DNA of 64,000 nt from positions 21,940-85,939 of IMG/VR virus record IMGVR_UViG_3300030061_004132; one strand, written 5' to 3'. The notes beneath the pieces are model-generated. The model did no database searches, had not been told where the DNA came from, and worked only from the letters and a program-made list of their open reading frames with translations. This document shows, piece after piece, positions 10,305 through 62,469 of the stretch (the first letter of the stretch is position 1; every line of letters begins with the position of its first letter). The translations under genes and the position numbers were made by a program. The stretch comes from a virus.

Positions 10305-10326
10305 ATAAACTCCGTTTATTAAAAAA

Positions 10327-10677
10327 TGGAGACGGCGGGAGTTGAACCCGCGTCCGGAACAATTTTCAATTCAAGTCATTCACAGGCTTGTCTGATTAAC
10401 CCAACCAGAGGGGCTGCTACAAAAAACCCGCTTCCTATGTAGCCTCAGAAGTCCACCCACTGTAAGTGGGGTAACCATTGTGATTTTTTTATTTTCGCAG
10501 GAATCAACCTGTTATCTTAGGTTGGGTATCAAGGTCCTAAGAAACCCCGCGATTATGCCGCTAAGGCAAGTTCGAAGTGATTATTGTTATTGGCAATTAT
10601 CAAATGGTTTGATTTTAAAGTCTCACGACTGCCTGCACTATCCTCTTCTATTCCCCCGTCGAATCCTGAACGTCCCC
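10327..10677 (-). ncRNA. ssrA: Transfer-messenger RNA (tmRNA)
   Basis: On the minus strand the 5' end GGGGACGTTCAGGATTCGAC and 3' end GGTTCAACTCCCGCC...GTCTCCA are the conserved tRNA-like ends. GGGGAC pairs with GTCTCC, leaving a discriminator A. CCA is not encoded. The tag frame at 10553-10594 starts at a GCC resume codon and reads ANNNNHFELALAA then TAA. The -LALAA end fits proteolysis by ClpXP-type proteases. Length 351 bases. The mRNA-like part contains many paired segments consistent with pseudoknots. It starts five bases after the Flp pilin stop. Confidence 0.95.
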
Positions 10678-21003: not shown

Positions 21004-21093
21004 AGAGTAAATACCTCATAATGTATAATAATTAGTTCTTTGTCTTGTAAAACAAACTAATTAAATTGGATATTTGTTTGTGGAGTGTGGTAT
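21004..21093. promoter_or_regulatory. Divergent intergenic region with promoters on both strands
   Basis: Plus strand: TTGTCT at 21040-21045, 16-base spacer, TAAATT at 21062-21067. Minus strand: TTTACA with TATACA about 18 bases on. Both are moderate matches, but this gap is the only place from which the two long blocks can be transcribed apart. Confidence 0.5.
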
Positions 21094-21969
21094 ATGAGTT
21101 TGTTATTAAAAGAATGGAAGACCTTTACTGAAAATAATAAAAACGCAGACTCTACCGCGATGTGGAATGCAAAAAGAATAGAACAGTTAGCTAAAGCTGG
21201 GAATTGGCGCGACTGGAGTGAAGTATATCTAAAATTCTCACTAGAATGGGATTACAACAATGTGGACCAGACAGAAGAGCTAGAAGAAGTAATAAGCAAG
21301 ATAGAACCAATGTCCAACAACAAGGTGGTAAGACTTCTCGGCGTAGGGACACAGGGAGTGGTATTTGAACTCGATAACGGGCATGCATTAAAACTTTTTC
21401 GTAGAGGGTACTTAAGTTATGGCAACGTAGAGGGGGAAATGAATTTTTATTCCTCATCAAAGGAAAAACTTTTCACAAAAAAAGGCAAGCTTCACACACT
21501 CCCAGTGTACGATTACGGCAAAACAGACGATGGTTTATATTGGGTTGAAATGGCCAAATTGGTTCCACTGGACCATTATGCGGAAATGACTGGTAGAGAA
21601 GATCCAACTGGGCTCATGACACTGATAGTTGAATATCTGATTGAATTTGAGGATATGGAAACTGATGGGGATGGCTACCTGCACGACGATGAAGAAGATC
21701 GTCAGGATTATGAAAATAAACGCAAGATACACATGCAATCAATAAAAAAACAAGCCGAAAAAGCACAACTTACTTTAAGAGAACTGGGGTCACTAATCGA
21801 TACAATTAAATCAGTGTATGATGAATATGGCGAGTCATATGTGTTAGATTTACACTCAGGAAATATGGGTGTGTTAGAAACATCAACCTTTAGGCACGGT
21901 GCGGCTCACGATAAGAAAAGAATAATGGACCCAACAAGAACACCTCGTTTTGTTCTTTTTGACCCATAG
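21094..21969 (+). CDS. Leader-bearing protein-kinase-like virion protein
   Basis: Start at ATG 21094 (GGAG eight bases upstream), giving 291 residues. N-terminus MSLLLKEWKTFTEN is a variant of the leader family. It has a kinase-like fold: glycine loop G83-V-G85-T-Q-G88, an ATP-lysine K100 in HALKLFRRG, a catalytic-loop-like YVLDLHSGNMG with Asp and Asn, and FVLFDP in the DFG position. Together these suggest an active or recently active phosphotransferase. The first gene of the plus block, possibly injected to phosphorylate a host target. Confidence 0.7.
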   Translation: MSLLLKEWKTFTENNKNADSTAMWNAKRIEQLAKAGNWRDWSEVYLKFSLEWDYNNVDQTEELEEVISKIEPMSNNKVVRLLGVGTQGVVFELDNGHALKLFRRGYLSYGNVEGEMNFYSSSKEKLFTKKGKLHTLPVYDYGKTDDGLYWVEMAKLVPLDHYAEMTGREDPTGLMTLIVEYLIEFEDMETDGDGYLHDDEEDRQDYENKRKIHMQSIKKQAEKAQLTLRELGSLIDTIKSVYDEYGESYVLDLHSGNMGVLETSTFRHGAAHDKKRIMDPTRTPRFVLFDP

Positions 21970-21981
21970 GATACAACAAAA

Positions 21982-22656
21982 ATGAAATTAATAATGGAAA
22001 ACTGGAGAGGATTTATAAAAGAGAAGCTCGCGCTAAAGCCAGGCCCAAGGGGCTGGGACTTGTATGCGAACCTTGTCACAGAGGCCTATATGAAAGCTCC
22101 TGTTTTTGAAGATCGCGCTGCGCCGGCGTGGGAAGCCCTAATACCTTTTATAGATAAAATGTATAAGCAGATACAAACTCGTATCGATATTGAACCTGTA
22201 GATTATCACCCTTATGATGTGGGTTTAGATGTTGATGTCACAGGTGCTGACAGGATGAGACAGTCCGTTGAGGATACGGGCAAACTTCTAGTGTCAAAGT
22301 CAGACGCCGAGCACCCCATATTTGATGAAGAGACTAATGTTAAATTTAGAGCCGTACACGATTATATGACTCACATACAGCCAAAAATACCGGCGGGTTT
22401 CACATCTGCCAAAAAACAAGGGTCAATTCATCAGGAACTTCGTGCTTATAATATACATGCCAAGACTGTCCCTAAAGCTGCAATACCTGCATTGTTTACC
22501 GAAGTGGTTGGGCAAGTATGCACTTTCTATGTAACCGGAAAATTTCAAGAGCAGAAAGTGTGCATCTTAGACGGTTTTGATTATATTAATGTTGGTGTTG
22601 TTGACGGATATAATATAGTTAACAAGGAGCTTATTAAAAATGAAACTCCTGCTTGA
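21982..22656 (+). CDS. Leader-bearing virion protein with FRAVHDY domain
   Basis: A 224-residue protein with leader MKLIMENWRGFIKEK. Residues about 120-200 contain FRAVHDYMTHIQ, QGSIHQELRAYNIHAK and LFTEVVGQV, an arrangement of His, Glu and Gln that I have seen in large polyvalent phage proteins of unknown function. The conserved polar residues suggest an enzyme. The 3' end overlaps the next gene by 17 bases. Confidence 0.65.
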   Translation: MKLIMENWRGFIKEKLALKPGPRGWDLYANLVTEAYMKAPVFEDRAAPAWEALIPFIDKMYKQIQTRIDIEPVDYHPYDVGLDVDVTGADRMRQSVEDTGKLLVSKSDAEHPIFDEETNVKFRAVHDYMTHIQPKIPAGFTSAKKQGSIHQELRAYNIHAKTVPKAAIPALFTEVVGQVCTFYVTGKFQEQKVCILDGFDYINVGVVDGYNIVNKELIKNETPA

Positions 22657-23074
22657 AACATGGCGTAAATATTTAAATGAGGAGAAGGTTGATCCTCAAA
22701 TGAAAAAATATCTTGACGATCACCCCTATATGGAACCTGACGGCCTCCAAGAAGAACCAAAAAAAGGAACAGGGAAGAAACCAAAGGGATCCGGAAGGCG
22801 TCTTTACACGGACGAAGACCCAAGTGATACGGTATCGGTTAAATTTTCTACTGTTCAGGATATTAAAGACACCCTATCTAAATCTTCATTCAAGGCAAAA
22901 TCTCACAAACGCCAGTCGCAAATAATTAATCTTATCCACCAAAGAGCACGCGCAGCCTATCAGAATGCCAAAGATCCAAAAGTAAAAGCTAGGCTTAAAA
23001 AATCTTTTGAGTACGCTAAAAAAAGAAAAGAGGCCTCCAAAGCCAAAACCAAACGGATGAATAAAAACAAATGA
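22640..23074 (+). CDS. Leader-bearing basic virion protein
   Basis: A 144-residue protein with leader MKLLLETWRKYLNEEK. After the presumed LNE cut site comes a Gly/Lys-rich linker and a highly basic helical C-terminus (RQSQIINLIHQRARAAYQNA then a Lys-rich tail). The mature protein would be strongly cationic, as expected for a protein packed against DNA. The stop overlaps the next ATG. Confidence 0.7.
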   Translation: MKLLLETWRKYLNEEKVDPQMKKYLDDHPYMEPDGLQEEPKKGTGKKPKGSGRRLYTDEDPSDTVSVKFSTVQDIKDTLSKSSFKAKSHKRQSQIINLIHQRARAAYQNAKDPKVKARLKKSFEYAKKRKEASKAKTKRMNKNK

Positions 23075-23580
23075 AACTTCTACTTGAAAACTGGAAAAAG
23101 TATTTACATGAAGCTTCTGTTGGGTCTGACCTGGCAAAGTCAATCGAATACACAGCTTTTTTTCTAGATCCTCAGCACGAGGGAACAAAAAAATTAAAAG
23201 ATATGATCCCTGGGGGTTGGAAGGAATACGCTGATCACATGACAATGATACCCCCGACAGATATGAAGCAAAGGGTATCCCCTAGTCAACTTGGCAAAGG
23301 CTGCATCAAAGTGGTTGGGATTGCAAAAGATGATAGGGTTATGGCTGGTCTAATTGAATTTACGGATGAATTTATGCTTTACTCAAAAAATAAGATATCA
23401 CATATTACAATTGCAACAAGCAAAAAACCATTGCTCGGAACAAAAGACATAGGTTCCTCTCACTACTCTCCGGCCCTCTCAAATGAATTTACAATGGATG
23501 ATTTTGAGGATATAGAGCCTATAGAAGTGTGCGGTGAGGTAAAAGAAAAAATGCGCCAAAGCCCAGAGGACAAAGAATAA
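23071..23580 (+). CDS. Leader-bearing 2H phosphoesterase-like protein
   Basis: A 169-residue protein, leader MKLLLENWKKYLHEAS. The two HxT motifs that define 2H phosphoesterases are present: H56-M-T58 in YADHMTM and H111-I-T113 in ISHITIA, with the expected spacing of about 55 residues. Relatives open 2',3'-cyclic phosphates or cleave cyclic oligonucleotides. Phage T4 Acb1, an anti-CBASS enzyme, is in this superfamily. Delivery in the head would place it in the host before any phage gene is expressed. The substrate is unproven. Confidence 0.75.
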   Translation: MKLLLENWKKYLHEASVGSDLAKSIEYTAFFLDPQHEGTKKLKDMIPGGWKEYADHMTMIPPTDMKQRVSPSQLGKGCIKVVGIAKDDRVMAGLIEFTDEFMLYSKNKISHITIATSKKPLLGTKDIGSSHYSPALSNEFTMDDFEDIEPIEVCGEVKEKMRQSPEDKE

Positions 23581-24422
23581 TGAACAAATTATTTAAAAAC
23601 TGGCGTGGGTATATTTTTGAGCAACAAGGTTCGTGGCTTGAAGATCTTAAGAAAGACCCCGGCGCGGTCTTAGATGAGACAAAATTTAAAGAGGTGGGTA
23701 CCGGCGCATTCCGAACAGCATACAAACCAATTGGAGTCGATGGTTATATTATTAAAGTCATTCAAAACCCTAGAGATACATTTATGAATACTAAAGATGT
23801 AGAACTATCAAAAAAGTACCCCGATATAATCCCAAAAACATACGCCCATGGTCCATGCTATGAAAAAGATGGACAACAAAAGTGTGGTTACGAATGGATT
23901 ATAATGGAAGAGGTTAAACCAATTGAGCTACAAGATAAAAATCTTTTTATAGAAATGATGAAGGTCAACTTTCCCGAAATAATAAATTTTTTAGTCACAG
24001 ATGAAAAAGGAAAAAAAGTTTTGGAGAGATATATGGCTACTAGGGCTTTCTATATCATGGCTATTTGGGAATTAATTGTAGAAAGTATAAATCACGGCAG
24101 CCTCAAATACGGAGAATATTCTAGTGAGCAGAGGGCTAAAATCGAAGATGAACCCGAGTCTGTGCCACCAGGAACTCTAGACATACCCGATATGCCTATG
24201 ATGGGAGAGCCAGGGAGTGAAGATGTTTCCTTTGTAAATTGGAAAGATATTCAAGAAATATACAAGAAAATCTTTGATATTGGGATGAACAATAACGTTT
24301 ACAGGCAACTATTTAAACTAGTTACTGTAGACGAGGCCGATATGTTTGACATAGGGCCAGGAAATATTGCTATCGACGATAAATCAAACTTTAAAGTATT
24401 AGACACATCAATATTTAATTAA
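23580..24422 (+). CDS. Leader-bearing protein-kinase-like virion protein 2
   Basis: A 280-residue protein, leader MNKLFKNWRGYIFEQQ. It has a glycine loop EVGTGAFRTAY at 38-48, ATP-lysine K59 in YIIKV, a hinge-like WIIMEEVKP, and MFDIGPGNIAI then FKVLDTSIF at the end, equivalent to the catalytic D-x4-N and DFG positions. It is not closely similar to the kinase at 21094. The acidic insert near residues 185-215 (DEPESVPPGTLDIPD) is unusual. Confidence 0.68.
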   Translation: MNKLFKNWRGYIFEQQGSWLEDLKKDPGAVLDETKFKEVGTGAFRTAYKPIGVDGYIIKVIQNPRDTFMNTKDVELSKKYPDIIPKTYAHGPCYEKDGQQKCGYEWIIMEEVKPIELQDKNLFIEMMKVNFPEIINFLVTDEKGKKVLERYMATRAFYIMAIWELIVESINHGSLKYGEYSSEQRAKIEDEPESVPPGTLDIPDMPMMGEPGSEDVSFVNWKDIQEIYKKIFDIGMNNNVYRQLFKLVTVDEADMFDIGPGNIAIDDKSNFKVLDTSIFN

Positions 24423-25545: not shown

Positions 25546-26184
25546 ATGAAGCTTCTACTTGAAAAATGGCGAGGATATATAAACGAAATATCATTTGACG
25601 CTGTTAGTGCGTTTGAATTTGACGATCGCCAATGGGAACACAAAGCATACGTATATAGATTTTCTGATCATGAAGATCAAACCTATGAAGTAAAGTTCAA
25701 TCCAATGGATAGAGGTAGCATCATTAGTTGGGATATTGATTATAAGGTAGAAGGTGGCGAATACTATGAATTAACGGGCAAAAATATAGTTGTGAAAGTA
25801 ATGGCCACAGTAGCCCAGATTGTAATGGACTTTATTAAAAGACCCGATCGCCCAGTTGAACAACAAAAAAGAATTTTTTACTTTTCTGGGGCAATCGGAC
25901 CTGGTGAGACCGACGCGTTCGCGGGTATATCTGCTGGGAAAAGAACTAGGCTTTACACACACATGCTTATGAAGATGCTCCCGGCAGGGTGGGATATGTC
26001 AGTAGATTCTAAAACACCAAATGCTATTTGGTTTTTTAACGAAAAAGAACTCGGCAATTTATCAGAAGATGAAGAAAGATTTATTAGTAGTATGGGCGGG
26101 GACATAAAAGATATAAAGAACAAGATAAAAATGCCAGGTGTTCAGGGTATGCCAGGAGGTGAAGAAAATGAAGCTTCTATTTGA
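25546..26184 (+). CDS. Leader-bearing virion protein, unknown domain
   Basis: A 212-residue protein, leader MKLLLEKWRGYINEIS. The body has a beta-rich first part (YVYRFSDHEDQTYEVKFNP) and an alpha-beta second part (AGISAGKRTRLYTHMLMKML) reminiscent of N-acetyltransferase-like or toxin-like folds, but I do not recognise it. The coding end overlaps the next gene by 17 bases. Confidence 0.65.
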   Translation: MKLLLEKWRGYINEISFDAVSAFEFDDRQWEHKAYVYRFSDHEDQTYEVKFNPMDRGSIISWDIDYKVEGGEYYELTGKNIVVKVMATVAQIVMDFIKRPDRPVEQQKRIFYFSGAIGPGETDAFAGISAGKRTRLYTHMLMKMLPAGWDMSVDSKTPNAIWFFNEKELGNLSEDEERFISSMGGDIKDIKNKIKMPGVQGMPGGEENEASI

Positions 26185-28072
26185 AAATTGGCGTAGATAT
26201 ATATTAAATGAAATAACCCTAGATCAAGCTAGAGAGAGACTCGAAACCAAAGTAATTAAAAAAATAATTAAATCTTCAATATATGACCTCAAACAAGAAT
26301 ACGGCGATCCCTTCAATCTCGCTGATGACGAACTTGAAGACATGGTGGTTTTTGAAAAACTCTTGGAAAGTGAAGCATATGTAAAGGTATTTGCAAAAAT
26401 ATACGGTTATGTTTTAGATAAAATTATAATGTCATTAGACCTAGATGATAGGGAAAAAGGAACGGCACTTAATTGGCTTATCTCTGTCAGTAGGACCGAC
26501 AAAAAGATCCCGGACGCCGTCTACAGTGAAAATCCGCAAGAATTTTCGTATAATTTTGCACAAGCAATAACCTCTGAAATAATGCAATCAATTATTGATA
26601 TTGCAGATTCGGCTGACGCTCGTGAAATTAAAGGACGGGCAGGACGGGCCAGCAAAATTTATGACATAAATTACTTGGCTGGTATTGTAGATGATTCCTA
26701 CGACCCCCGGTATCCCCCCTCTACAACGACACAATACTCAGTGGATTCCGAGGAATTCCAGATTAGAAATGATCTATTTAGAAAGTCAGCCCCATTCAAA
26801 GCCGTCGCCGCTGAAGTATACAGCGTCAGCCGTGATCATCTATACGAATATATTCGATATATAAAAGGCCCAATGGAAAAGTTCTTTCATTATCAACAGT
26901 TCATGCCGGAGAAAGATATAAACAAAATAAAAACATTTGAAGAGTTTGTAAAAAACACGGAAGATGCAAGTGACGCCATAGAAAGGTATCAAAATAAAAA
27001 ATCTTATGAAGACGTTGACCAAGGCACTGAAATTTTTAGAGATGATGACGATTTCTTTATTGCTGCCATTCATAATAAAGGGGCTGCTTGTCATTGGGGC
27101 AAGGAAACTGACTGGTGTACAGCCGCACCGGGCTTAGATTATTTTAGGCAGTACTATAGTATAGCAAGCCCAATAATTGTTTTAATTGATAAAAAAGCAA
27201 AGTTCATGTCTTCTGCGGGAAGGCCAGGCGGCCCGCATCGTAAATATCAATTTCATTATGCTACGGAACAATTTATGGATGCGAGAGACATGCTGGTTAA
27301 ACAGCCGCAACAAAGTTATATACACCGCGAGATTATGAAAACGGACATACCACACAAGTATGCCAATATTAAAAGTGATTTCCTAGAGATGGTAAGCCAG
27401 TCCCGCGATTACTACTGGGCCTCGTATACCGATCTCGGGTGGCCAGCCCTCGATAAAGTACTTGTTGGAAAAATACCAAGTGGCCTTATGGTACTGTCGC
27501 GTCTTGAGGCAAGAGATCAGGCATATCAATACAACTATAAAGTGTACGAAAATTATATAACAAACAAGATCAAACAAAGAGACTTGGGAGCCATAACAAC
27601 AATCATTATAGCTCGATATATTTTCGACGCTTTTGGCCTCTCCCTCTCCCCGGCGAGCAATAGGGGGCCTATGCTCATGGCCCATCAATTTATATTAGAC
27701 AACATAGAAGATGTGTTGGAAGCCATACCGGAAGACAAAGATTTCTTTAAAGCGTTCCCGAGGGAGGCTCAAAAGTCAGGCGTGCTCATGATGTCGTCGA
27801 AACTTTCAGCAGCGGCGGATTCTGTGGAATCGTTTCTTAGGAACAGGGAATACTATGAAAAACTACCAAATAATTTAAAGGAAAAGTATGTTAGATTAAT
27901 AAATATAGCTGACGAAGCATCGCGAGAAACAACAAATGTATCCTGGGCTCGGTCAGCGCTCAGAACAATTGGCGTTCCGCAGGATCGCCAAAATGGCGGC
28001 GAAGAAGAGAAAGAAGATAAAACAGAAATAACAGAAAGATGGAAAAAGCTTTCAGGAGTGAGGGGAAAATAA
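26168..28072 (+). CDS. Large leader-bearing protein with WCTA domain
   Basis: Start ATG 26168 follows GGAGGTGA and gives the leader MKLLFENWRRYILNEI. Total 634 residues. Around residues 310-380 it has CHWGKETDWCTA, a stretch SPIIVLIDKKAKF and YQFHYATEQFMDARD. This is a domain found in many phage and giant-virus proteins, with conserved Trp, Cys and His but unknown activity. The remaining sequence is helical. It is the largest presumed injected protein of the set. Confidence 0.7.
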   Translation: MKLLFENWRRYILNEITLDQARERLETKVIKKIIKSSIYDLKQEYGDPFNLADDELEDMVVFEKLLESEAYVKVFAKIYGYVLDKIIMSLDLDDREKGTALNWLISVSRTDKKIPDAVYSENPQEFSYNFAQAITSEIMQSIIDIADSADAREIKGRAGRASKIYDINYLAGIVDDSYDPRYPPSTTTQYSVDSEEFQIRNDLFRKSAPFKAVAAEVYSVSRDHLYEYIRYIKGPMEKFFHYQQFMPEKDINKIKTFEEFVKNTEDASDAIERYQNKKSYEDVDQGTEIFRDDDDFFIAAIHNKGAACHWGKETDWCTAAPGLDYFRQYYSIASPIIVLIDKKAKFMSSAGRPGGPHRKYQFHYATEQFMDARDMLVKQPQQSYIHREIMKTDIPHKYANIKSDFLEMVSQSRDYYWASYTDLGWPALDKVLVGKIPSGLMVLSRLEARDQAYQYNYKVYENYITNKIKQRDLGAITTIIIARYIFDAFGLSLSPASNRGPMLMAHQFILDNIEDVLEAIPEDKDFFKAFPREAQKSGVLMMSSKLSAAADSVESFLRNREYYEKLPNNLKEKYVRLINIADEASRETTNVSWARSALRTIGVPQDRQNGGEEEKEDKTEITERWKKLSGVRGK

Positions 28073-28073
28073 A

Positions 28074-28391
28074 ATGAAACTATTAATTGAAAATTGGCAA
28101 AATTATCTCAATGAAGCCCACGGCTTAAACCAGAAAGATCTCGACTACGTTAAAAACTTTATTGATAAAACTGATGATAAAGAATTAAAACGAATTTTAA
28201 ATTTTATTGTTAAGTCCAATGTCCTAGTAGATAAGACCCAAGACGTAACCAAAATAAATAATAAAAAAAAAGTAGAGGATCTTGAGGAAAAGTGTCAAAA
28301 AGGATATAAAACACATGAGACTAGAAAAACAAAAAAAATGTTCGGCAAAACGTATCGCAATTGTGTTAAGGCAGAGGGTATAGATGAATGA
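28074..28391 (+). CDS. Leader-bearing small Cys-containing protein
   Basis: A 105-residue protein, leader MKLLIENWQNYLNEAH. The end has EKCQKGYKTHETRKTKKMFG then KTYRNCVKAEG, the CxxGY...NCV pattern seen in small basic phage head proteins. Coupled to both neighbours (stop/start spacing 2 and -4 bases). Confidence 0.7.
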   Translation: MKLLIENWQNYLNEAHGLNQKDLDYVKNFIDKTDDKELKRILNFIVKSNVLVDKTQDVTKINNKKKVEDLEEKCQKGYKTHETRKTKKMFGKTYRNCVKAEGIDE

Positions 28392-28825
28392 AACTACTAT
28401 TTGAAAATTGGAAAAAATTTATAAATGAAGCAAAAGAATTGGTTTGCCCAAAAGCGACACAAGACCTTGAGCTTAATACAAAAAATCGTAATGCTGCCAT
28501 AAAGGCAGAACATATACAGTATGGCCCCTTAAACCTTTCCGATCAAGATTATTGGGTTAAAGCAGCAGAACATTGGAACACAAAACCGGAAGTTGCAAAA
28601 AAATCTAGGTGTGGGAACTGCATTGCTTTTGATATCTCACCCAGGATGCTAGACTGCCTACCAGGGCCTGTTTCGGAGCCAATCGAAGATGCGGAGGGCA
28701 AACTTGGTTATTGTTGGATGCATCATTTTAAGTGCCATTCCGCCAGATCGTGTTATACTTGGGCTGGAGGAGGTCCCATAACAAAGGACTCAATATCAGC
28801 AGAGTGGCAAAACAAAAATCAGTAG
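28388..28825 (+). CDS. Leader-bearing Cys-rich marine phage protein
   Basis: A 145-residue protein, leader MKLLFENWKKFINEAK. The body CPKATQDLELNTKNRNAAIK, then RCGNCIAFDISPRMLDC and LGYCWMHHFKCHSARSC, has at least seven cysteines and three histidines in a pattern recurrent in cyanophage and other marine phage virion proteins. It suggests a zinc or iron-sulfur site. The function of this family is unknown. Confidence 0.75.
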   Translation: MKLLFENWKKFINEAKELVCPKATQDLELNTKNRNAAIKAEHIQYGPLNLSDQDYWVKAAEHWNTKPEVAKKSRCGNCIAFDISPRMLDCLPGPVSEPIEDAEGKLGYCWMHHFKCHSARSCYTWAGGGPITKDSISAEWQNKNQ

Positions 28826-28834
28826 GAGGGGCAA

Positions 28835-29512
28835 ATGAAACTTTTAGTCGAAAACTGGCGTCAATATTTGAACGAAAACGAACAGCAGTTCCAGATATAT
28901 TGCGATATGGACGGAGTTTTGGTAGACTTTATGAAGGCAGCCGTTGAAACAATTAACAATGATGTCGCTGACATGTCTATCCCAAGTCATAAGGAAACAG
29001 GCGGTATAACCACCCTCGGACGCGTGCGCCGAGCCCTTGAACAGGAGGGCAGAAGTTTTATTACAAGAGAGGATATTGAAACCAAAAAAAATCAGACAAA
29101 AGTGCAAAAAACGGCTAACTCGTACATGTATAGAAGGGTTGAGGACGACTTTGATTGGTGGGCTAAACTAGAATGGATGCCCGATGGAAAAGAGTTGTGG
29201 GATCATATTAAAGTTCTTAATCCATATATTCTCACTTCTCCGATGAAACAAGAGGGCTCGCGAGAGGGCAAGAGAGCATGGGTTGCAAAAAATTTAAAAT
29301 TGCCCAACGGTGGACAACCGGAGAAAGTAATTTTAAATTCAAAAAAATATTTGTACGCAAATGTTGGATCAACCAAAAACATTCTTATTGATGATATGAC
29401 AAAAAATACAATTCCGTGGAATGAGGTAAGCAAGGACACAGGCAGTGTGGCGATACTTCATACCTCAACCGCAGATACAATAAGACAGTTAGACAAGATC
29501 CTTAGAAAGTAA
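28835..29512 (+). CDS. Leader-bearing HAD hydrolase (5'(3')-nucleotidase-like)
   Basis: A 225-residue protein, leader MKLLVENWRQYLNENE, ribosome site AGGAGG. HAD motif I is D24-M-D26-G-V-L-V-D, motif II is YILTSP, and motif IV is ILIDDMTKN. The architecture resembles NT5C-type deoxynucleotidases. In a virion it could dephosphorylate nucleotides or signalling molecules on entry. It is the last plus-strand gene before a convergent pair. Confidence 0.78.
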   Translation: MKLLVENWRQYLNENEQQFQIYCDMDGVLVDFMKAAVETINNDVADMSIPSHKETGGITTLGRVRRALEQEGRSFITREDIETKKNQTKVQKTANSYMYRRVEDDFDWWAKLEWMPDGKELWDHIKVLNPYILTSPMKQEGSREGKRAWVAKNLKLPNGGQPEKVILNSKKYLYANVGSTKNILIDDMTKNTIPWNEVSKDTGSVAILHTSTADTIRQLDKILRK

Positions 29513-32053: not shown

Positions 32054-32788
32054 ATGAAAAACATACTTGAAAATTGGGGTTCTTTCCTAACGGAGATGGC
32101 GTCGTATGCTAGAGTCAAGAAAAAAATAGACGATGAAAATATGGAGTTTGTGGCCATCTCGGCGTTCAGGGCATACCGCAGTAATAAAGAAAATCTTAAC
32201 CACGACAAACAAATGAAAATCTATTTATCAAATATGGGCTTTTCATATACAAAGACGTTAGGTGGTTACTCGGAGCCGATGGTGAACCCTGAAACCGGGG
32301 AACCCGTTGTAAGAACCGACCCGGAAACCGGAGAGGAAGAAGAATTAAAAACTGATGTGGTGGAGAAATCAATTATCATCACAAAAGAGCCAAGGCCAGA
32401 TGTAGCTTCTCCCGAAGGTGCCCCTTCTCTATTTGAAGTAGGGATGATACTGAGCCAGGCTCACGATCAAGATTCTTTTATTCATGGCGGCCCCAACACA
32501 ATCACCAACCCTAAAACAGGTGAGAGTGAACAGACTATGTTTATCGCCGGCTACAGTCGTGAAGGTGATAGGATTAGGGAACCGTGGGCCGGACCCTGGT
32601 CTTCCTTTGAGGAGGCAACAAAGGACGATGTGTATTGGACAAAGGTTGCTGGTGTCAAAGGAAAGTTTGTGGAAGAGAATTATAAAGTAAAGTTAGCCGA
32701 GGCCAAGAAAATAAAAGTAGAGAGTGGATTCGATGCCCTCAAGAGAAAATATTATATCGATAGATATAAAGCAATACTAGGGAACTAA
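32054..32788 (+). CDS. Leader-bearing virion protein, DUF3293-like
   Basis: A 244-residue protein, leader MKNILENWGSFLTEMA. Body: EFVAISAFRAYRSNKENLNH, LGGYSEP, and SLFEVGMILSQAHDQDSFIH, which loosely match DUF3293 (a strand, an Asn-containing helix, then E and H positions). Inserts repeat PETGEP/PETGEE. Own promoter upstream. Function unknown. Confidence 0.65.
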   Translation: MKNILENWGSFLTEMASYARVKKKIDDENMEFVAISAFRAYRSNKENLNHDKQMKIYLSNMGFSYTKTLGGYSEPMVNPETGEPVVRTDPETGEEEELKTDVVEKSIIITKEPRPDVASPEGAPSLFEVGMILSQAHDQDSFIHGGPNTITNPKTGESEQTMFIAGYSREGDRIREPWAGPWSSFEEATKDDVYWTKVAGVKGKFVEENYKVKLAEAKKIKVESGFDALKRKYYIDRYKAILGN

Positions 32789-32792
32789 AACA

Positions 32793-33422
32793 ATGAAGTT
32801 GATATTAGAGAATTGGAGAGAGTTTGTAAATAAGGAGCCCGAACGTTTAGACGAAGGCGTTATGGGTGGACTCGTAATACAGAAAATGATGGCCAAGGTT
32901 GATGATCTTATTCAATCTAACAACTTAAACGAAGTAGATAATATCATACCGTTACTCAAAAATCTAAGCCGTGAAACACAGCACCAAATTATAAAAGCAC
33001 TTGACGGGGTTTTGTATGGAGAGGTGCCGTCAGTCGAATTCGCCAACTGCGGTGCAGGAGAGGGAACCCCGTACTACGACCCTGCTCCAACATACGAACC
33101 ACAACAGTCGCTTAGAGAGCGACCCCTGCGCTCCCCGACTCGGGTTGCCACTGATGTAACTTCAGTAAGGAATCTTGGGCGGGGTTCATCCACAGGAGCA
33201 GATACTGGGCCCACTTGGAAAGACTGCTATAACAAGGGTTTGGTTTTAAAAACCGGCCCAGACGGTAAAGGTTATTGCGGCGAAGAAGGAGAGGACCAAT
33301 TGGGAGAAAACATTAGGGCAATGGTGGAAAAACTTAAGCGCTTAGGGCGCAGAGCAAAGGAAAAAATTATAAAGGGTCTCGATGGGTTTGTAGAATCAGA
33401 ACTTGAGGGCTGCTCGGGCTGA
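32793..33422 (+). CDS. Leader-bearing virion protein with duplicated segment
   Basis: A 209-residue protein, leader MKLILENWREFVNKEP. A motif near residue 60 (LLKNLSRETQHQIIKALDGV) returns near residue 180 (KLKRLGRRAKEKIIKGLDGF), so the protein has an internal duplication joined by a Pro/Arg-rich linker (YEPQQSLRERPLRSPTR). Function unknown. Confidence 0.65.
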   Translation: MKLILENWREFVNKEPERLDEGVMGGLVIQKMMAKVDDLIQSNNLNEVDNIIPLLKNLSRETQHQIIKALDGVLYGEVPSVEFANCGAGEGTPYYDPAPTYEPQQSLRERPLRSPTRVATDVTSVRNLGRGSSTGADTGPTWKDCYNKGLVLKTGPDGKGYCGEEGEDQLGENIRAMVEKLKRLGRRAKEKIIKGLDGFVESELEGCSG

Positions 33423-53214: not shown

Positions 53215-53241
53215 CAACCTTTTGTCATATAAATATAAGAG

Positions 53242-53325
53242 TGCCCAAGGCGGGACTCGAACCCGCAAGCCCAATGGGGCGACAGATTTTAAGTCTGTTG
53301 TGTATACCTATTCCACCACTTGGGC
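53242..53325 (-). tRNA. tRNA-Leu (UAA)
   Basis: 84 bases with a long variable arm. Acceptor GCCCAAG pairs with CTTGGGC, discriminator A. T-arm GCGGGTTCGAGTCCCGC, anticodon loop CTTAAAA reading UAA. CCA not encoded. Confidence 0.92.
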
Positions 53326-53332
53326 AAAGTGG

Positions 53333-53406
53333 TACGCCCTAGAGGATTCGAACCTCTGACCCTCGGCTTAGAAGGCCGATGCTCTATCCAACTGAGCTAA
53401 GGGCGC
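53333..53406 (-). tRNA. tRNA-Arg (UCU)
   Basis: 74 bases. Acceptor GCGCCCT with AGGGCGT (one G-U pair), T-arm AGAGGTTCGAATCCTCT, anticodon loop CTTCTAA reading UCU for AGA codons. CCA not encoded. Confidence 0.92.
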
Positions 53407-53413
53407 AAAATCC

Positions 53414-53605
53414 CTAAGCTCTTAACTTGTCGAGGTGTTGCCTCTGTTCCTCGTACTTTCCAAGATTAGCCTCGACGTAATCTTTTACCTTCAATAGTTT
53501 ATCAAGATAATGATATTTTGTCCAGCCATCATTTCGTGGACTTTCAACTTCTATAATCCATCGCTGTAGCTGTCCGATAACTTCCGTCTCAGAAAATCTG
53601 TTCAT
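53414..53605 (-). CDS. Small helical protein
   Basis: A 63-residue protein: MNRFSETEVIGQLQRWIIEV, KYHYLDKLLKVKDYVEANLG. Coupled by ATGA to the 24-residue membrane peptide upstream. No family recognised. Confidence 0.6.
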   Translation of the reverse strand: MNRFSETEVIGQLQRWIIEVESPRNDGWTKYHYLDKLLKVKDYVEANLGKYEEQRQHLDKLRA

Positions 53606-53676
53606 CCTACTACTCCCGTAAAAAGAATAACGTAGAAGCCCAAAAGAGCCATCATAGAATATTCAGCGTAATCCAT
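53602..53676 (-). CDS. Membrane micro-protein (24 residues)
   Basis: ATG 53674-53676 after GGAGGGA, stop TGA 53602-53604 overlapping the next ATG. MDYAEYSMMALLGFYVILFT plus GVVG is one membrane helix. The promoter lies directly upstream, so the peptide is very likely made. Confidence 0.7.
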   Translation of the reverse strand: MDYAEYSMMALLGFYVILFTGVVG

Positions 53677-53694
53677 ACTCCCTCCATACATAAA

Positions 53695-53723
53695 ATATTA
53701 ACGTCTTGGTTACAGGCTGTCAA
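53695..53723 (-). promoter_or_regulatory. Array promoter for gene 53602-53676
   Basis: TTGACA 53718-53723, 17-base spacer, TAATAT 53695-53700. Confidence 0.75.
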
Positions 53724-53726
53724 ATC

Positions 53727-53879
53727 TTATTTGCCCTGACCCCGATACTTTTTTCGGTAACCCTTCGGAACAGTGCCGTTTGAGTTGAGGGCTTTAAATT
53801 TTGTCCTCTTCCCATTTCCAATGCTTGTTTTCTTACCAAGACCGTGTTTAGTGGCCCTCTTATTATTGCCTTTAGCCAT
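53727..53879 (-). CDS. Small highly basic protein (50 residues)
   Basis: ATG 53877-53879 after AAGGAGT, stop 53727-53729. MAKGNNKRATKHGLGKKTSI, GNGKRTKFKALNSNGTVPKG, YRKKYRGQGK. Over one third Lys/Arg and Gly-rich, suggesting RNA or DNA binding. A second frame across the same bases is a shadow. It follows the membrane gene at 53883 by three bases. Confidence 0.7.
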   Translation of the reverse strand: MAKGNNKRATKHGLGKKTSIGNGKRTKFKALNSNGTVPKGYRKKYRGQGK

Positions 53880-53882
53880 TTT

Positions 53883-54074
53883 TTACTCCTTATAATAGTT
53901 AGAAAATCCCATAAAGGTTGGTGCCCAAAGCCCAACAAAAAGTGCTAACCGCTCAATATGAGCCGCGTCTACACCACCTGTGTTCCAGATAACAACTGAG
54001 CCTGCAATCGACACAATTGTTGCCACTAGAAACCCATTCGAGATTTTATTATTCTTTTCTAAATACTTCATCAT
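53883..54074 (-). CDS. Small membrane protein
   Basis: A 63-residue protein with two hydrophobic segments (FLVATIVSIAGSVVIW at about 15-30, LALFVGLWAPTFMGF at about 43-57). AGGAGGA precedes the ATG pair MM. Own promoter. Confidence 0.65.
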   Translation of the reverse strand: MMKYLEKNNKISNGFLVATIVSIAGSVVIWNTGGVDAAHIERLALFVGLWAPTFMGFSNYYKE

Positions 54075-54087
54075 TCCTCCTGTTATT

Positions 54088-54115
54088 GTAATAACCTATT
54101 TACATTTCTTGTCAA
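54088..54115 (-). promoter_or_regulatory. Array promoter for gene ending 54074
   Basis: TTGACA 54110-54115, 16-base spacer, TATTAC 54088-54093. Confidence 0.65.
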
Positions 54116-54122
54116 CTAAAAA

Positions 54123-54195
54123 TGAGTCTTCAGGGACTCGAACCCTGAACCTACGGATTAAAAGTCCGGTGCTCTACCAATTGAGCTAAAGACTC
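54123..54195 (-). tRNA. tRNA-Lys (UUU)
   Basis: 73 bases. Acceptor GAGTCTT with AAGACTC, discriminator A. T-arm CAGGGTTCGAGTCCCTG, anticodon loop CTTTTAA reading UUU. CCA not encoded. Confidence 0.93.
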
Positions 54196-54201
54196 GTAAA
54201 G

Positions 54202-54278
54202 TGGTGGGCCTACTGGGACTTGAACCCAGGACCGCAGCTTTATAAGAACTGTGCTCTAACCACCTGAGCTATAGGCCC
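54202..54278 (-). tRNA. tRNA-Ile (UAU)
   Basis: 77 bases including an encoded CCA. Acceptor GGGCCTA with TAGGCCC, D-arm TAGCTCAGGTGGTTAGAGC like tRNA-Ile, anticodon stem CAGTT/AGCTG with loop CTTATAA reading UAU. It would decode AUA without needing the TilS-modified CAU tRNA. Confidence 0.88.
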
Positions 54279-54362
54279 ATAAGGGTGCCGGTGGTTATCT
54301 CTGAACACATGAGACAGTGACCGGAGTATGTCTCGCTTAGGTTCTATGTGCGGTCGTTCAAT

Positions 54363-54390
54363 AACATAATAGTTAAAATTTATTTGTCAA
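54363..54390 (-). promoter_or_regulatory. Promoter of the tRNA-Ile/tRNA-Lys pair
   Basis: TTGACA 54385-54390, 16-base spacer, TATGTT 54363-54368. The transcript starts about 80 bases before tRNA-Ile. The -35 holds the TGA stop of the upstream peptide. Confidence 0.7.
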
Positions 54391-54476
54391 TCAGAATAGT
54401 TACATTCGTATTTTCCGTAAACGTAACCTACCCAGAACGCTATAAAGTGCGTTCCCAACATAAGACATAAACTCAA
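54387..54476 (-). CDS. Membrane micro-protein with TTG start (29 residues)
   Basis: TTG 54474-54476 is six bases after GGAGG. An internal ATG would give 24 residues. (M)SLCLMLGTHFIAFWVGYVYG then KYECNYSD: one membrane helix and a short Cys-containing tail. The stop lies in the tRNA promoter's TTGACA. Confidence 0.55.
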   Translation of the reverse strand: MSLCLMLGTHFIAFWVGYVYGKYECNYSD

Positions 54477-54490
54477 ATGACACCTCCTAT

Positions 54491-54697
54491 TTACATAATA
54501 TAATTACCATAACCGTTTTCACTAGCACACTCTCGCGAACAATATCCGTGATACAAAATGTGCTCAGGATCTTTTTTGGCTCCAGACCATTTGGGTAACG
54601 ACTTACCGCAAGTCGTACAAATCGTAAACTTCCCATACAGAAGACGATTGTCTTCGTCCATCTGTCCGTGCCAAGGCTTCCAAGCGCCATCGCTCAT
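54491..54697 (-). CDS. Small zinc-finger protein
   Basis: Start ATG 54695-54697 after GGGGGAG. 68 residues with YGKFTICTTCGKSLPKWSGA and YHGYCSRECASENG, two Cys pairs in an FCS/TRASH-like treble-clef arrangement. Nucleic-acid or protein binding is likely. Confidence 0.65.
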   Translation of the reverse strand: MSDGAWKPWHGQMDEDNRLLYGKFTICTTCGKSLPKWSGAKKDPEHILYHGYCSRECASENGYGNYIM

Positions 54698-54721
54698 TAT
54701 CTCCCCCACCAATATAAATTG

Positions 54722-54795
54722 CGCCCCTTACTGGATTTGAACCAATGACACGCGGATTAACAGTCCGCTGCTCTAACCAACTGAGCTAAAGGGGC
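54722..54795 (-). tRNA. tRNA-Asn (GUU)
   Basis: 74 bases. Acceptor GCCCCTT with AAGGGGC, discriminator G, anticodon loop CTGTTAA reading GUU. CCA not encoded. The small ORF upstream ends at its first base. Confidence 0.92.
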
Positions 54796-59801: not shown

Positions 59802-61055
59802 TCAATACCAAATAATTTTATCAAATTGTTTAATGGCTGAGAAGAATTCATCTAACATGTTTTTAGCTTCCTCGTCGTAGTCACCATTTCTTGATAGAAT
59901 CATTTTATCGTTTCCAAACTTGCTCACACCCTTCAAATCTAAAAACTTTTTATTATAAGGGACATGCCCAACTGGAAAGAGACTGGTGTCCTTGCTACTG
60001 GCTCCGGGCATGAGGATAACATCCCAACCCATGCCATCCGCTGGGTTGACTAGCATGGGATATTCGCCGTAATCAAAGGGTAAAATGTACGGAGTATCTC
60101 CGCCAAACATTTTTGTAGAACCTTTGGGACCATCTATAGATATTGTTTGTTTTGGATCCATTAAAACCATATCAACCAAATCTTTTTTTGTCGGAACAAT
60201 AATCTTTTTATTAACTGCCTCGTCAATCTTAGACAGTATATAGGGGGCTGGCGGCGTTCTTGGTTTTTCCCGCTTGAAGTGCCTCTCTATATCTACCCCA
60301 GTTTTTTCCTGTGCTTTGTTCAGCATGTGTGTGTGGGTGCTTAGCCCTTGGAAATCTTTAACAAAAGCTAGAAACCTTTTATCTTTATTTGTTTCCAAAA
60401 ACTTTGATATTACCTCTGATAACCTTGCAATCGCCTGTTCATATGCCTGGCCATCAAACGGCACTATTAATTTAGTGTCAAAACCATACTTCGCCCAATC
60501 CCTCGTAAACAAGCCAGACCTCTGCGCGTCATCCCTAAACAAACCTGGGTTGTCGTACTGTGGGAAATCGCCCCACTTGTCCTGTGGAACTATGCCTAAC
60601 GGCTCACTTATTGTAACAAAATACACAGGGTCTATTTCCCCGGCCTTTACCATATTTATAATTTGGTTGTATGACTTGTATATACCTCTTGTTGCACAAG
60701 CCCAAGGTTTTGTTTTAGCACATGGCACAAAAATAACTGTGCCATACTCCTCAGGCACTTGGAACGATGCAATGGAGTCGTGCCATTTTTTAATCTTAGG
60801 GTGACTAAATAACTTTAGTGTTTCTCCCGGCGTATACGCTGTTAGTTCCGGTTCGAGTTGCGGGTTACTGTCTTGACTCCTCTGCACTAGGATGTCCCTA
60901 AGTTGTCCCCACTCCTGTTCGGTGGCGTAGCTGTACCTTGATTGCTTTCCTGTCCGCAAAACCTTGGGTGTGCCGAGCTGATTTTTCTCCGCGTCGGACA
61001 ACTTACTTATATCTTCATTTATAAAACTGCGCCAGTTTTCAAACAAAAGTTTCAT
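59802..61055 (-). CDS. Leader-bearing two-domain virion protein
   Basis: Start ATG 61053-61055 overlaps the upstream stop (TAATG) and gives the leader MKLLFENWRSFINEDI, 417 residues. Domain 1 (about 95-255) has VIFVPCAKTKPWACATRGIY and FVTISEPLGIVPQDKWGDFP, resembling the DUF5591/ArcS-like fold of tRNA-modifying proteins. Domain 2 (about 300-417) has GGDTPYILPFDYGEYPML, GWDVILMPGAS and FGNDKMIL, resembling a phage module sometimes labelled pyrophosphatase-like. Both are tentative. Confidence 0.65.
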   Translation of the reverse strand: MKLLFENWRSFINEDISKLSDAEKNQLGTPKVLRTGKQSRYSYATEQEWGQLRDILVQRSQDSNPQLEPELTAYTPGETLKLFSHPKIKKWHDSIASFQVPEEYGTVIFVPCAKTKPWACATRGIYKSYNQIINMVKAGEIDPVYFVTISEPLGIVPQDKWGDFPQYDNPGLFRDDAQRSGLFTRDWAKYGFDTKLIVPFDGQAYEQAIARLSEVISKFLETNKDKRFLAFVKDFQGLSTHTHMLNKAQEKTGVDIERHFKREKPRTPPAPYILSKIDEAVNKKIIVPTKKDLVDMVLMDPKQTISIDGPKGSTKMFGGDTPYILPFDYGEYPMLVNPADGMGWDVILMPGASSKDTSLFPVGHVPYNKKFLDLKGVSKFGNDKMILSRNGDYDEEAKNMLDEFFSAIKQFDKIIWY

Positions 61056-62100: not shown

Positions 62101-62469
62101 TTAAATCTCTTTTAACGATCTCCACCTTACATATCTCACGGACGCGTTGGGCACGCCGACAGCCCTCAAATTACTATTTATATGCGGTACAAGAACTGTC
62201 TTAATATATTGTATCGCGGCCTTGCCAAGAGACATAAATTTGACTGATGTGTCAATGACATAATATTGTTCATAATTAACAGCGTTCTCGTTTTGAGATA
62301 TAACAGTAACCCCTGGGATCGTCCTGATCTTATTTAACACGTCGTTAATGTCCACGCCACCCATTTTATTTAGTCGCAGTACCATGTCAACTTTAAACAC
62401 CCTGTTCTCAGGTGATTTCCTGTCTTGCTCGTTTATATATGTTTTAAAGCCCTCTAACAAATTTTTCAT
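62101..62469 (-). CDS. Leader-bearing small protein
   Basis: A 122-residue protein, leader MKNLLEGFKTYINEQD (Phe instead of Trp). The body KVDMVLRLNKMGGVDINDVL, IRTIPGVTVISQNENAV has a ferredoxin-like beta-alpha-beta look. GAGGG lies before the ATG. Function unknown. Confidence 0.65.
   Translation of the reverse strand: MKNLLEGFKTYINEQDRKSPENRVFKVDMVLRLNKMGGVDINDVLNKIRTIPGVTVISQNENAVNYEQYYVIDTSVKFMSLGKAAIQYIKTVLVPHINSNLRAVGVPNASVRYVRWRSLKEI

What the first reader, a model, noticed from the sequence alone, without database searches (positions are those of the whole stretch)
23071..23580. Packaged 2H phosphoesterase: candidate anti-CBASS or anti-cyclic-nucleotide enzyme delivered with the DNA
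The body after the leader has HMT (56-58) and HIT (111-113), the paired catalytic motifs of 2H phosphoesterases. T4 Acb1, which destroys CBASS cyclic oligonucleotides, belongs to this superfamily. A copy placed in the head would act before any phage transcription. Substrate is unproven. RNA 2',3'-cyclic phosphate repair is the alternative.
Basis: partly seen in the sequence, partly recalled or inferred. Interest (0 to 1): 0.78.

Follow-up and report, generated by a model that had tools for sequence, protein, structure and literature searches.

The report
Likely head-packaged RNA-end-healing phage enzyme
A large T4-like bacterial virus carries a small enzyme, related to the end-healing part of fungal tRNA ligase, behind a tag that probably loads it into the virus head, so it more likely mends broken RNA ends on entry than destroys the bacterium's CBASS alarm molecules.

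Summary
The ORF at 23071-23580 (+, 169 aa) is real and both HxT motifs are where stated. It is a 2H phosphoesterase: Pfam tRNA_lig_CPD (Trl1 cyclic phosphodiesterase) E=8.8e-7, above cut-off. Both His-x-Thr pairs are invariant in 28 aligned sequences. An alignment-based AlphaFold model (pLDDT 86.6) matches CNPase and a fungal RNA kinase entry.

It is not in the Acb1 family. None of the 28 matches Pfam Acb1, all match tRNA_lig_CPD, and T4 Acb1 does the reverse. Relatives are fused to, or sit beside, HAD 'Swiss Army Knife' RNA-repair phosphatases, P-loop kinases, CCA-adding enzymes and RNA ligases. RNA 2',3'-cyclic-phosphate end healing is therefore the best reading.

Packaging is plausible: the 14-residue leader recurs on about a dozen genes, ends in a [LI]-x-E site, and the genome encodes a gp21-type prohead protease. 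In two other phages the homologue also shares a leader with neighbours. No virion proteomics exists.

Main gap: no RNA ligase, RtcB, KptA or clear kinase was found in this phage's 183-kb genome; substrate and partners are unproven.

The parts
23071..23580 (+). 2H phosphoesterase gene, Trl1-CPD type, 169 aa plus stop
   Evidence: ORF; PF08302 E=8.8e-7; 28-member family; AF2 model
23071..23112 (+). 14-residue leader MKLLLENWKKYLHE; putative capsid-targeting propeptide ending in L-x-E, predicted prohead-protease cut after E14 (before A15)
   Evidence: Leader HMM hits on about a dozen genes of the 183-kb genome; low-confidence helix outside the fold; gp21-type protease encoded elsewhere in the genome
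23236..23244 (+). First catalytic motif H56-M-T58
   Evidence: Invariant H and T in 28 sequences
23401..23409 (+). Second catalytic motif H111-I-T113, within conserved NK[IV][PS]H[IV]T
   Evidence: Invariant N107, K108, H111, T113
23479..23484 (+). Conserved S137-N138 pair
   Evidence: Invariant in 28 sequences
21982..22656 (+). Leader-bearing gene (MKLIMENWRGFIKE), phrog_3170, unknown
22640..23074 (+). Leader-bearing basic protein (MKLLLETWRKYLNE), overlaps the 2H gene start by ATGA
23580..24422 (+). Leader-bearing gene (MNKLFKNWRGYIFE), weak protein-kinase-like match
   Evidence: phrog_15752 E=0.041 only
25546..26184 (+). Leader-bearing gene (MKLLLEKWRGYINE), unknown
26168..28072 (+). Leader-bearing gene (MKLLFENWRRYILNE), unknown
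28074..28391 (+). Leader-bearing gene (MKLLIENWQNYLNE), unknown
28388..28825 (+). Leader-bearing gene (MKLLFENWKKFINE), unknown
28835..29512 (+). Leader-bearing HAD/5'(3')-deoxyribonucleotidase-like phosphatase (MKLLVENWRQYLNE); candidate partner phosphatase
   Evidence: PF06941 NT5C E=1e-5; phrog_2643 E=1.5e-17
32054..32788 (+). Leader-bearing gene (MKNILENWGSFLTE), S-adenosylmethionine-lyase-like match below cut-off
   Evidence: PF23780 E=1.3e-4, 22.4 bits against cut-off 28
32793..33422 (+). Leader-bearing gene (MKLILENWREFVNKE), unknown
59802..61055 (-). Leader-bearing gene (MKLLFENWRSFINE), DUF5591
62101..62469 (-). Leader-bearing gene (MKNLLEGFKTYINE), unknown

Best explanation
The gene encodes a metal-independent RNA end-healing enzyme: a 2H phosphoesterase of the Trl1/CNPase-like cyclic phosphodiesterase clade. 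It is made late with a 14-residue leader that carries it into the prohead; the gp21-type protease clips the leader after E14, and the mature enzyme enters the cell with the DNA. There its two His-x-Thr motifs open 2',3'-cyclic phosphate ends, left on tRNA or other RNA by host metal-independent RNases such as anticodon nucleases, to a linear phosphate (2'-phosphate if it follows Trl1/CNPase chemistry). This readies the end for later phosphatase, ligase or CCA-adding steps. Shown here: ORF, motifs, family, predicted fold, leader repetition, presence of the protease, RNA-repair company in relatives. Inferred: packaging and cleavage, the RNA substrate, which RNA, and the partners in this phage.
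For: PF08302 tRNA_lig_CPD above cut-off and at E<=0.1 in all 28 aligned sequences. HxT pairs invariant. Model of pLDDT 86.6 whose best PDB matches are CNPase (2',3'-cyclic nucleotide 3'-phosphodiesterase), RICH and a fungal RNA kinase entry; best viral match a Marseillevirus RNA ligase at 7e-6. Relatives fused to HAD_SAK_1 (9e-37, 2.4e-41), AAA_33 kinase, PolyA_pol/CCA head and ART-PolyVal. CCA-adding gene directly upstream of the HAD-CPD gene in L030 and L031; P-loop kinase directly upstream in L045. T4-type RNA ligase within 5 kb in 5 of 22 records. Leader: about a dozen genes, 0 of 181 null ORFs as similar, gp21-type protease E=8e-27, shared-leader runs with the homologue in L043 and L036.
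Against: In the 183-kb genome no RNA_lig_T4_1, RNA_ligase, KptA or RtcB was found, and only a sub-cut-off kinase match, so the rest of a repair pathway is missing or unrecognised. A 2'-phosphate end would be a dead end for host RtcB (established knowledge). Foldseek PDB E-values are modest (best 4.8e-3, TM about 0.5). The PF08302 match covers only positions 134-206 of 250. No virion proteomics. Most homologues in other phages lack an obvious leader, so packaging is not a family trait.
Confidence: 0.6

Rival explanations
1. Packaged anti-CBASS enzyme working like T4 Acb1: it cleaves cyclic di- and trinucleotides at the moment of entry, before the alarm spreads.
For: Same 2H superfamily and HxT tetrad (Acb1 H44, T46, H113, T115: PMC9117128). 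An Acb1 model (Erwinia phage RisingSun) is match 8 in BFVD, E=3.7e-3. Packaged 2H domains countering nucleotide signals have been proposed (PMC9503650). No RNA ligase found in this genome.
Against: No member of the family matches Pfam Acb1 PF23474 at E<=0.1, while T4 Acb1 matches it at 202.7 bits and does not match tRNA_lig_CPD. hhalign against T4 Acb1: probability 1.4%. No Acb1 among the 50 listed PDB matches. Relatives associate with RNA-repair enzymes.
Confidence: 0.08
2. Same enzyme and substrate class, but not packaged: the leader has another job (for example binding an infection-induced structure or a scaffold protein), and the enzyme acts later in infection.
For: Packaging is inferred only from leader repetition, the [LI]-x-E site and a gp21-type protease; many homologues are leaderless.
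Against: Leader length, position and final [LI]-x-E match the T4 propeptides (10-19 residues: PMC9026906; cut C-terminal to Glu: PMC5694885). Separate leader-sharing runs in L036 and L043.
Confidence: 0.2
3. A 2H enzyme for another phosphodiester: ADP-ribose 1'',2''-cyclic phosphate, 2'-5' oligoadenylate, or an RNase like Usb1 that trims RNA.
For: 2H enzymes do these reactions; polyvalent-protein 2H domains were proposed as RNases or 2'-5'A hydrolases (PMC5512222). One relative is fused to an ART-PolyVal domain. The ligase/kinase partners are missing here.
Against: The closest profile family is the Trl1 end-healing domain, and kinase, HAD and CCA-enzyme fusions point to RNA ends. KptA, the source of ADP-ribose cyclic phosphate, was not found.
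Confidence: 0.12

Closest known systems
Cyclic phosphodiesterase (CPD) domain of fungal tRNA ligase Trl1 (Pfam PF08302); structural cousin CNPase
   Same: Profile match above cut-off; all 28 aligned sequences match; HxT pair; CNPase and a fungal RNA kinase entry among the best PDB folds. Relatives fused to a P-loop kinase recall the Trl1 order kinase-CPD.
   Different: Single small phage protein with a leader; no fused ligase or kinase here, and no partner ligase found in the genome; only part of the profile (134-206 of 250) is matched.
HAD 'Swiss Army Knife' RNA-repair proteins (PF10307 HAD_SAK_1)
   Same: Direct fusions HAD-CPD (L030, L031) and CPD-HAD (L058, L061; below the HAD_SAK cut-off) in relatives.
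   Different: No HAD_SAK in the window genome by an HMM from relatives; the co-located leader-bearing HAD is of NT5C type.
Acb1 (T4 gp57B), anti-CBASS 2H nuclease, PF23474
   Same: 2H superfamily, HxT/HxT tetrad; weak fold similarity.
   Different: Different Pfam family in both directions; not aligned significantly by hhalign.
T4 internal proteins and Alt with capsid targeting sequences
   Same: Short N-terminal propeptide ending in hydrophobic-x-Glu, shared by several unrelated proteins, with a gp21-type protease in the genome.
   Different: Leader sequence differs (MKLLLENWKKYLHE) and more genes carry it; no virion proteomics.
2H domains fused to MuF or portal proteins in phages (PMC9503650; PMC5512222)
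   Same: Predicted head-packaged 2H enzymes.
   Different: Here the enzyme stands alone behind a leader and belongs to the Trl1-CPD group, whereas the polyvalent 2H versions were reported never to associate with RNA ligases.

Membership tests
2H phosphoesterase superfamily | Two H-x-[ST] motifs, one per half of the fold, both conserved | tested here: met
   H56-T58 and H111-T113 invariant in 28 sequences
2H phosphoesterase superfamily | 2H fold | tested here: met
   AF2 pLDDT 86.6, pTM 0.78; PDB top matches are 2H enzymes at probability up to 1.00 but E>=4.8e-3
tRNA_lig_CPD (Trl1 cyclic phosphodiesterase), PF08302 | Profile score above curated cut-off | tested here: met
   29.1 bits against 23, E=8.8e-7; 28 of 28 aligned sequences match at E<=0.1
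tRNA_lig_CPD (Trl1 cyclic phosphodiesterase), PF08302 | Part of a ligase-kinase-CPD polypeptide or acting with a ligase | tested here: not met
   Stand-alone; no RNA ligase family found in the 183-kb genome. Met in some relatives
tRNA_lig_CPD (Trl1 cyclic phosphodiesterase), PF08302 | Hydrolysis of RNA 2',3'-cyclic phosphate to 2'-phosphate | not testable with these tools
   Needs biochemistry
Acb1 (PF23474) | Match to the Acb1 profile | tested here: not met
   No match at E<=1 for the query or E<=0.1 for any of 28 aligned sequences; positive control T4 gp57B 202.7 bits
Acb1 (PF23474) | Profile similarity to T4 Acb1 | tested here: not met
   hhalign probability 1.4%
Acb1 (PF23474) | Degrades CBASS cyclic oligonucleotides | not testable with these tools
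   Needs biochemistry
Capsid-targeted internal head protein (T4 CTS type) | Short N-terminal propeptide shared among otherwise unrelated proteins | tested here: met
   About a dozen genes share the leader; 0 of 181 null ORFs score as high
Capsid-targeted internal head protein (T4 CTS type) | Hydrophobic-x-Glu cut site and a gp21-type protease in the genome | tested here: met
   L12-H-E14 in the leader; putative capsid protein has LLRE|A at 59; PF03420 E=8.2e-27 at G001:85172-85603
Capsid-targeted internal head protein (T4 CTS type) | Protein present in virions, cut after the propeptide | not testable with these tools
   Needs virion mass spectrometry

The most novel reading that the evidence does not exclude
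Some large phages ship a pre-made RNA end-healing enzyme inside the head, by capsid-targeting leader, so that tRNAs cut by host suicide nucleases can be healed before the first phage gene is transcribed. The window gene is one case; the homologues in L036 and L043, each in its own leader-sharing run with a different leader, suggest the trick arose or spread more than once.
Probability: 0.4. Interest if true: 0.75.

Novelty: new variant of a known kind. Interest (0 to 1): 0.55.

Why it matters
Phage RNA repair (as in T4 Pnkp/Rnl1) is known as a system made after infection starts, while host anticodon nucleases can fire early. A virion-delivered end-healing enzyme would act at time zero. The family found here (28 aligned members, plus crAss-like phages) also links a group of small unnamed phage proteins to RNA repair through fusions to kinases, HAD phosphatases and CCA-adding enzymes, and points to cultured phages (Bacteroides phages DAC19 and PhiCrAssBcn) in which enzyme activity can be tested.

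Tried and rejected
Single-sequence AlphaFold gave pLDDT 33.5 and was discarded. Lak-phage tblastn hits H5-H19 lie in a long unrelated reading frame and are chance. Mdm2 and Mlh1 sequence matches in the PDB are chance. Genome-collection scans found no cellular relative; the two pattern hits L028 and L029 are in short frames. A generic phi-x-E leader test was too unspecific (background 43 of 246) and was replaced by the within-locus leader test. Ligase, KptA, RtcB and kinase partners were sought in the phage's own genome without success. PADLOC gave nothing for the query. No paper holding both 'capsid targeting sequence' and 'RNA repair' was found in the held library.

Full report
OBSERVATION. 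The ORF at 23071-23580 (+) encodes 169 aa with HMT at 56-58 and HIT at 111-113. It starts within the stop of the preceding leader-bearing gene (ATGA) and its stop overlaps the start of the next (TAATG), so it sits in an operon. The window lies in a 93.7-kb virus record. A second record of 183,023 bases carries the identical gene and overlaps the window on both sides of its break; it serves here as the near-complete genome (G001).

FAMILY. Pfam gives a single match, PF08302 tRNA_lig_CPD, the cyclic phosphodiesterase domain of fungal tRNA ligase Trl1: E=8.8e-7, 29.1 bits against a cut-off of 23, residues 46-119. PHROGs and NCBIfam give nothing. The first relatives were small 'hypothetical' proteins of crAss-like Bacteroides phages. 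A degenerate DNA pattern for the motif NK[IV][PS]H[IV]T found more, and a profile search then gave 50 loci in IMG/VR. In the 28-member alignment A5, H56, T58, A92, N107, K108, H111, T113, S137 and N138 are invariant. Scanned one by one, all 28 match tRNA_lig_CPD at E<=0.1, and none matches Acb1.

FOLD. The single-sequence model was useless. With A5 the model has pLDDT 86.6 and pTM 0.78; the body is mostly above 85, while the leader is a helix of low confidence outside the fold. The best PDB matches are mouse CNPase catalytic domains (E from 4.8e-3, probability up to 1.00), goldfish RICH and 6u05, a fungal RNA kinase entry. I take the last to belong to the Trl1 kinase and CPD structures of Banerjee et al. 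2019, cited in PMC7824862; this link is from memory. E-values are modest and TM about 0.5, so the fold class is supported rather than the precise family. In BFVD the best match is a Marseillevirus RNA ligase (7.2e-6); an Acb1 is eighth (3.7e-3, TM 0.38).

ACB1 TEST. T4 gp57B scores 202.7 bits against Pfam Acb1 PF23474 and does not match PF08302. The query family does the reverse. hhalign of A5 against T4 Acb1 gives probability 1.4% (a single-sequence template, so this alone would be weak). The shared HxT tetrad (PMC9117128) is a superfamily feature. The protein is therefore not an Acb1 family member. Whether it could still cleave cyclic oligonucleotides is untested; I put that at 8%.

COMPANY OF RELATIVES. 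Fusions: HAD_SAK_1 to the CPD in L030 and L031 (9e-37, 2.4e-41) and in reverse order in L058 and L061 (below cut-off); AAA_33 kinase to the CPD in L034 and L073; CCA-adding (PolyA_pol) head to the CPD in L063; ART-PolyVal to the CPD in L043. Neighbours: a CCA-adding enzyme directly upstream of the HAD-CPD gene in L030 and L031, with a Nudix gene downstream in L030; an AAA_33 kinase (with a GIY-YIG insertion) directly upstream in L045; a CCA-adding/HD protein with a weak 2H match directly downstream in L043. T4-type RNA ligases lie within 5 kb of the homologue in five of 22 records (G005, G008, G010, G012, G016, distances computed from the contig ranges). In G008 kinase, CPD and ligase sit within about 3.5 kb: the three Trl1 activities as separate genes. 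In some crAss-like phages a gene annotated as TROVE-domain protein lies about 1 kb downstream (annotation as deposited; my Pfam scan of a short cut piece showed no TROVE). This pattern is what RNA-end repair predicts.

THE GAP IN THIS PHAGE. G001 has no match to RNA_lig_T4_1, RNA_ligase, KptA or RtcB, and only a sub-cut-off AAA_33 match outside the window. Profiles of the relatives' ligases, kinases, CCA and HAD domains find nothing convincing. A possible substitute phosphatase is the leader-bearing NT5C-type HAD at 28835-29512; this is speculation. By established chemistry a 2'-phosphate end would not suit host RtcB, so a lone CPD is either part of an unrecognised pathway or has a further role.

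PACKAGING. A profile of the leader hits about a dozen genes of G001 at their N-termini and nothing else convincing. Within the window region, five other genes score 48-51 against the query's leader; the best of 181 ORFs from other loci scores 14. Most leaders end in [LI]-x-E at residue 14. T4 propeptides are 10-19 residues, target the protein into the prohead core and are removed by gp21 (PMC9026906), which cuts after Glu (PMC5694885). G001 encodes a gp21-type protease (PF03420, E=8.2e-27), in a block with what look like T4-like portal, scaffold and capsid genes (by position and sequence only); the putative capsid protein has LLRE|A at residue 59. In two other phages the CPD homologue also shares its leader with its neighbours: L043 (MIKLK[SE]LL, four genes) and L036 (M[NK]FK[EQN]W, three genes), with no comparable null match for the best neighbours. 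Other homologues have suggestive but untested N-termini, and many have none. A gp21-type protease was found in 4 of 22 relatives' records, neither L036's nor L043's, but those are fragments. Packaging is therefore well motivated, not shown.

PRIOR WORK. Earlier comparative studies already propose that phage 2H enzymes process cyclic ends for RNA ligases (PMC7824862) and that some 2H domains fused to MuF or portal are packaged (PMC9503650). For polyvalent-protein 2H domains a related study argued against RNA repair because no ligase association was seen (PMC5512222). What is added here is a Trl1-CPD-type family with RNA-repair fusions and a T4-like leader on several members. No paper in the held library joins capsid targeting sequences with RNA repair; most subscription papers could not be searched.

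VERDICT. Observation confirmed. Anti-CBASS reading not favoured. Best reading: head-packaged (inferred) RNA 2',3'-cyclic phosphate healing enzyme, confidence 0.6.

Noticed in passing
window 10324-10677 (-): A complete tmRNA gene in a phage genome: Rfam RF00023 104.1 bits, E=2.9e-41; ARAGORN tag ANNNNHFELALAA.
   Followed up: partly
window 53241-54795 (-): Five phage tRNA genes (Leu TAA, Arg TCT, Lys TTT, Ile TAT, Asn GTT); tRNA-Lys(UUU) is the classical anticodon-nuclease target (own knowledge).
   Followed up: no
window 32054-32788 (+): Leader-bearing protein with a weak S-adenosylmethionine-lyase match (PF23780, E=1.3e-4, below cut-off): possible packaged anti-restriction enzyme.
   Followed up: no
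window 21085-21969 (+): Match to the T7 0.7-like protein kinase family (phrog_15752, E=3.2e-6) with a weak leader-like N-terminus MSLLLKEWKTFTEN.
   Followed up: no
L043 3886-10340 (+): Four consecutive genes share the leader MIKLK[SE]LL, including an ART-PolyVal/CPD fusion and a 987-aa CCA-adding/HD protein: a candidate head-packaged RNA-repair and ADP-ribosylation kit.
   Followed up: partly
L045 3775-7185 (+): Kinase (with GIY-YIG insertion), CPD and RNA ligase lie close together: the three Trl1 activities as separate phage genes.
   Followed up: partly
L082 1092-1911 (T4 73591-74410): In T4 the anti-CBASS gene 57B lies next to ipI, which encodes an internal head protein; probably coincidence.
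   Followed up: no
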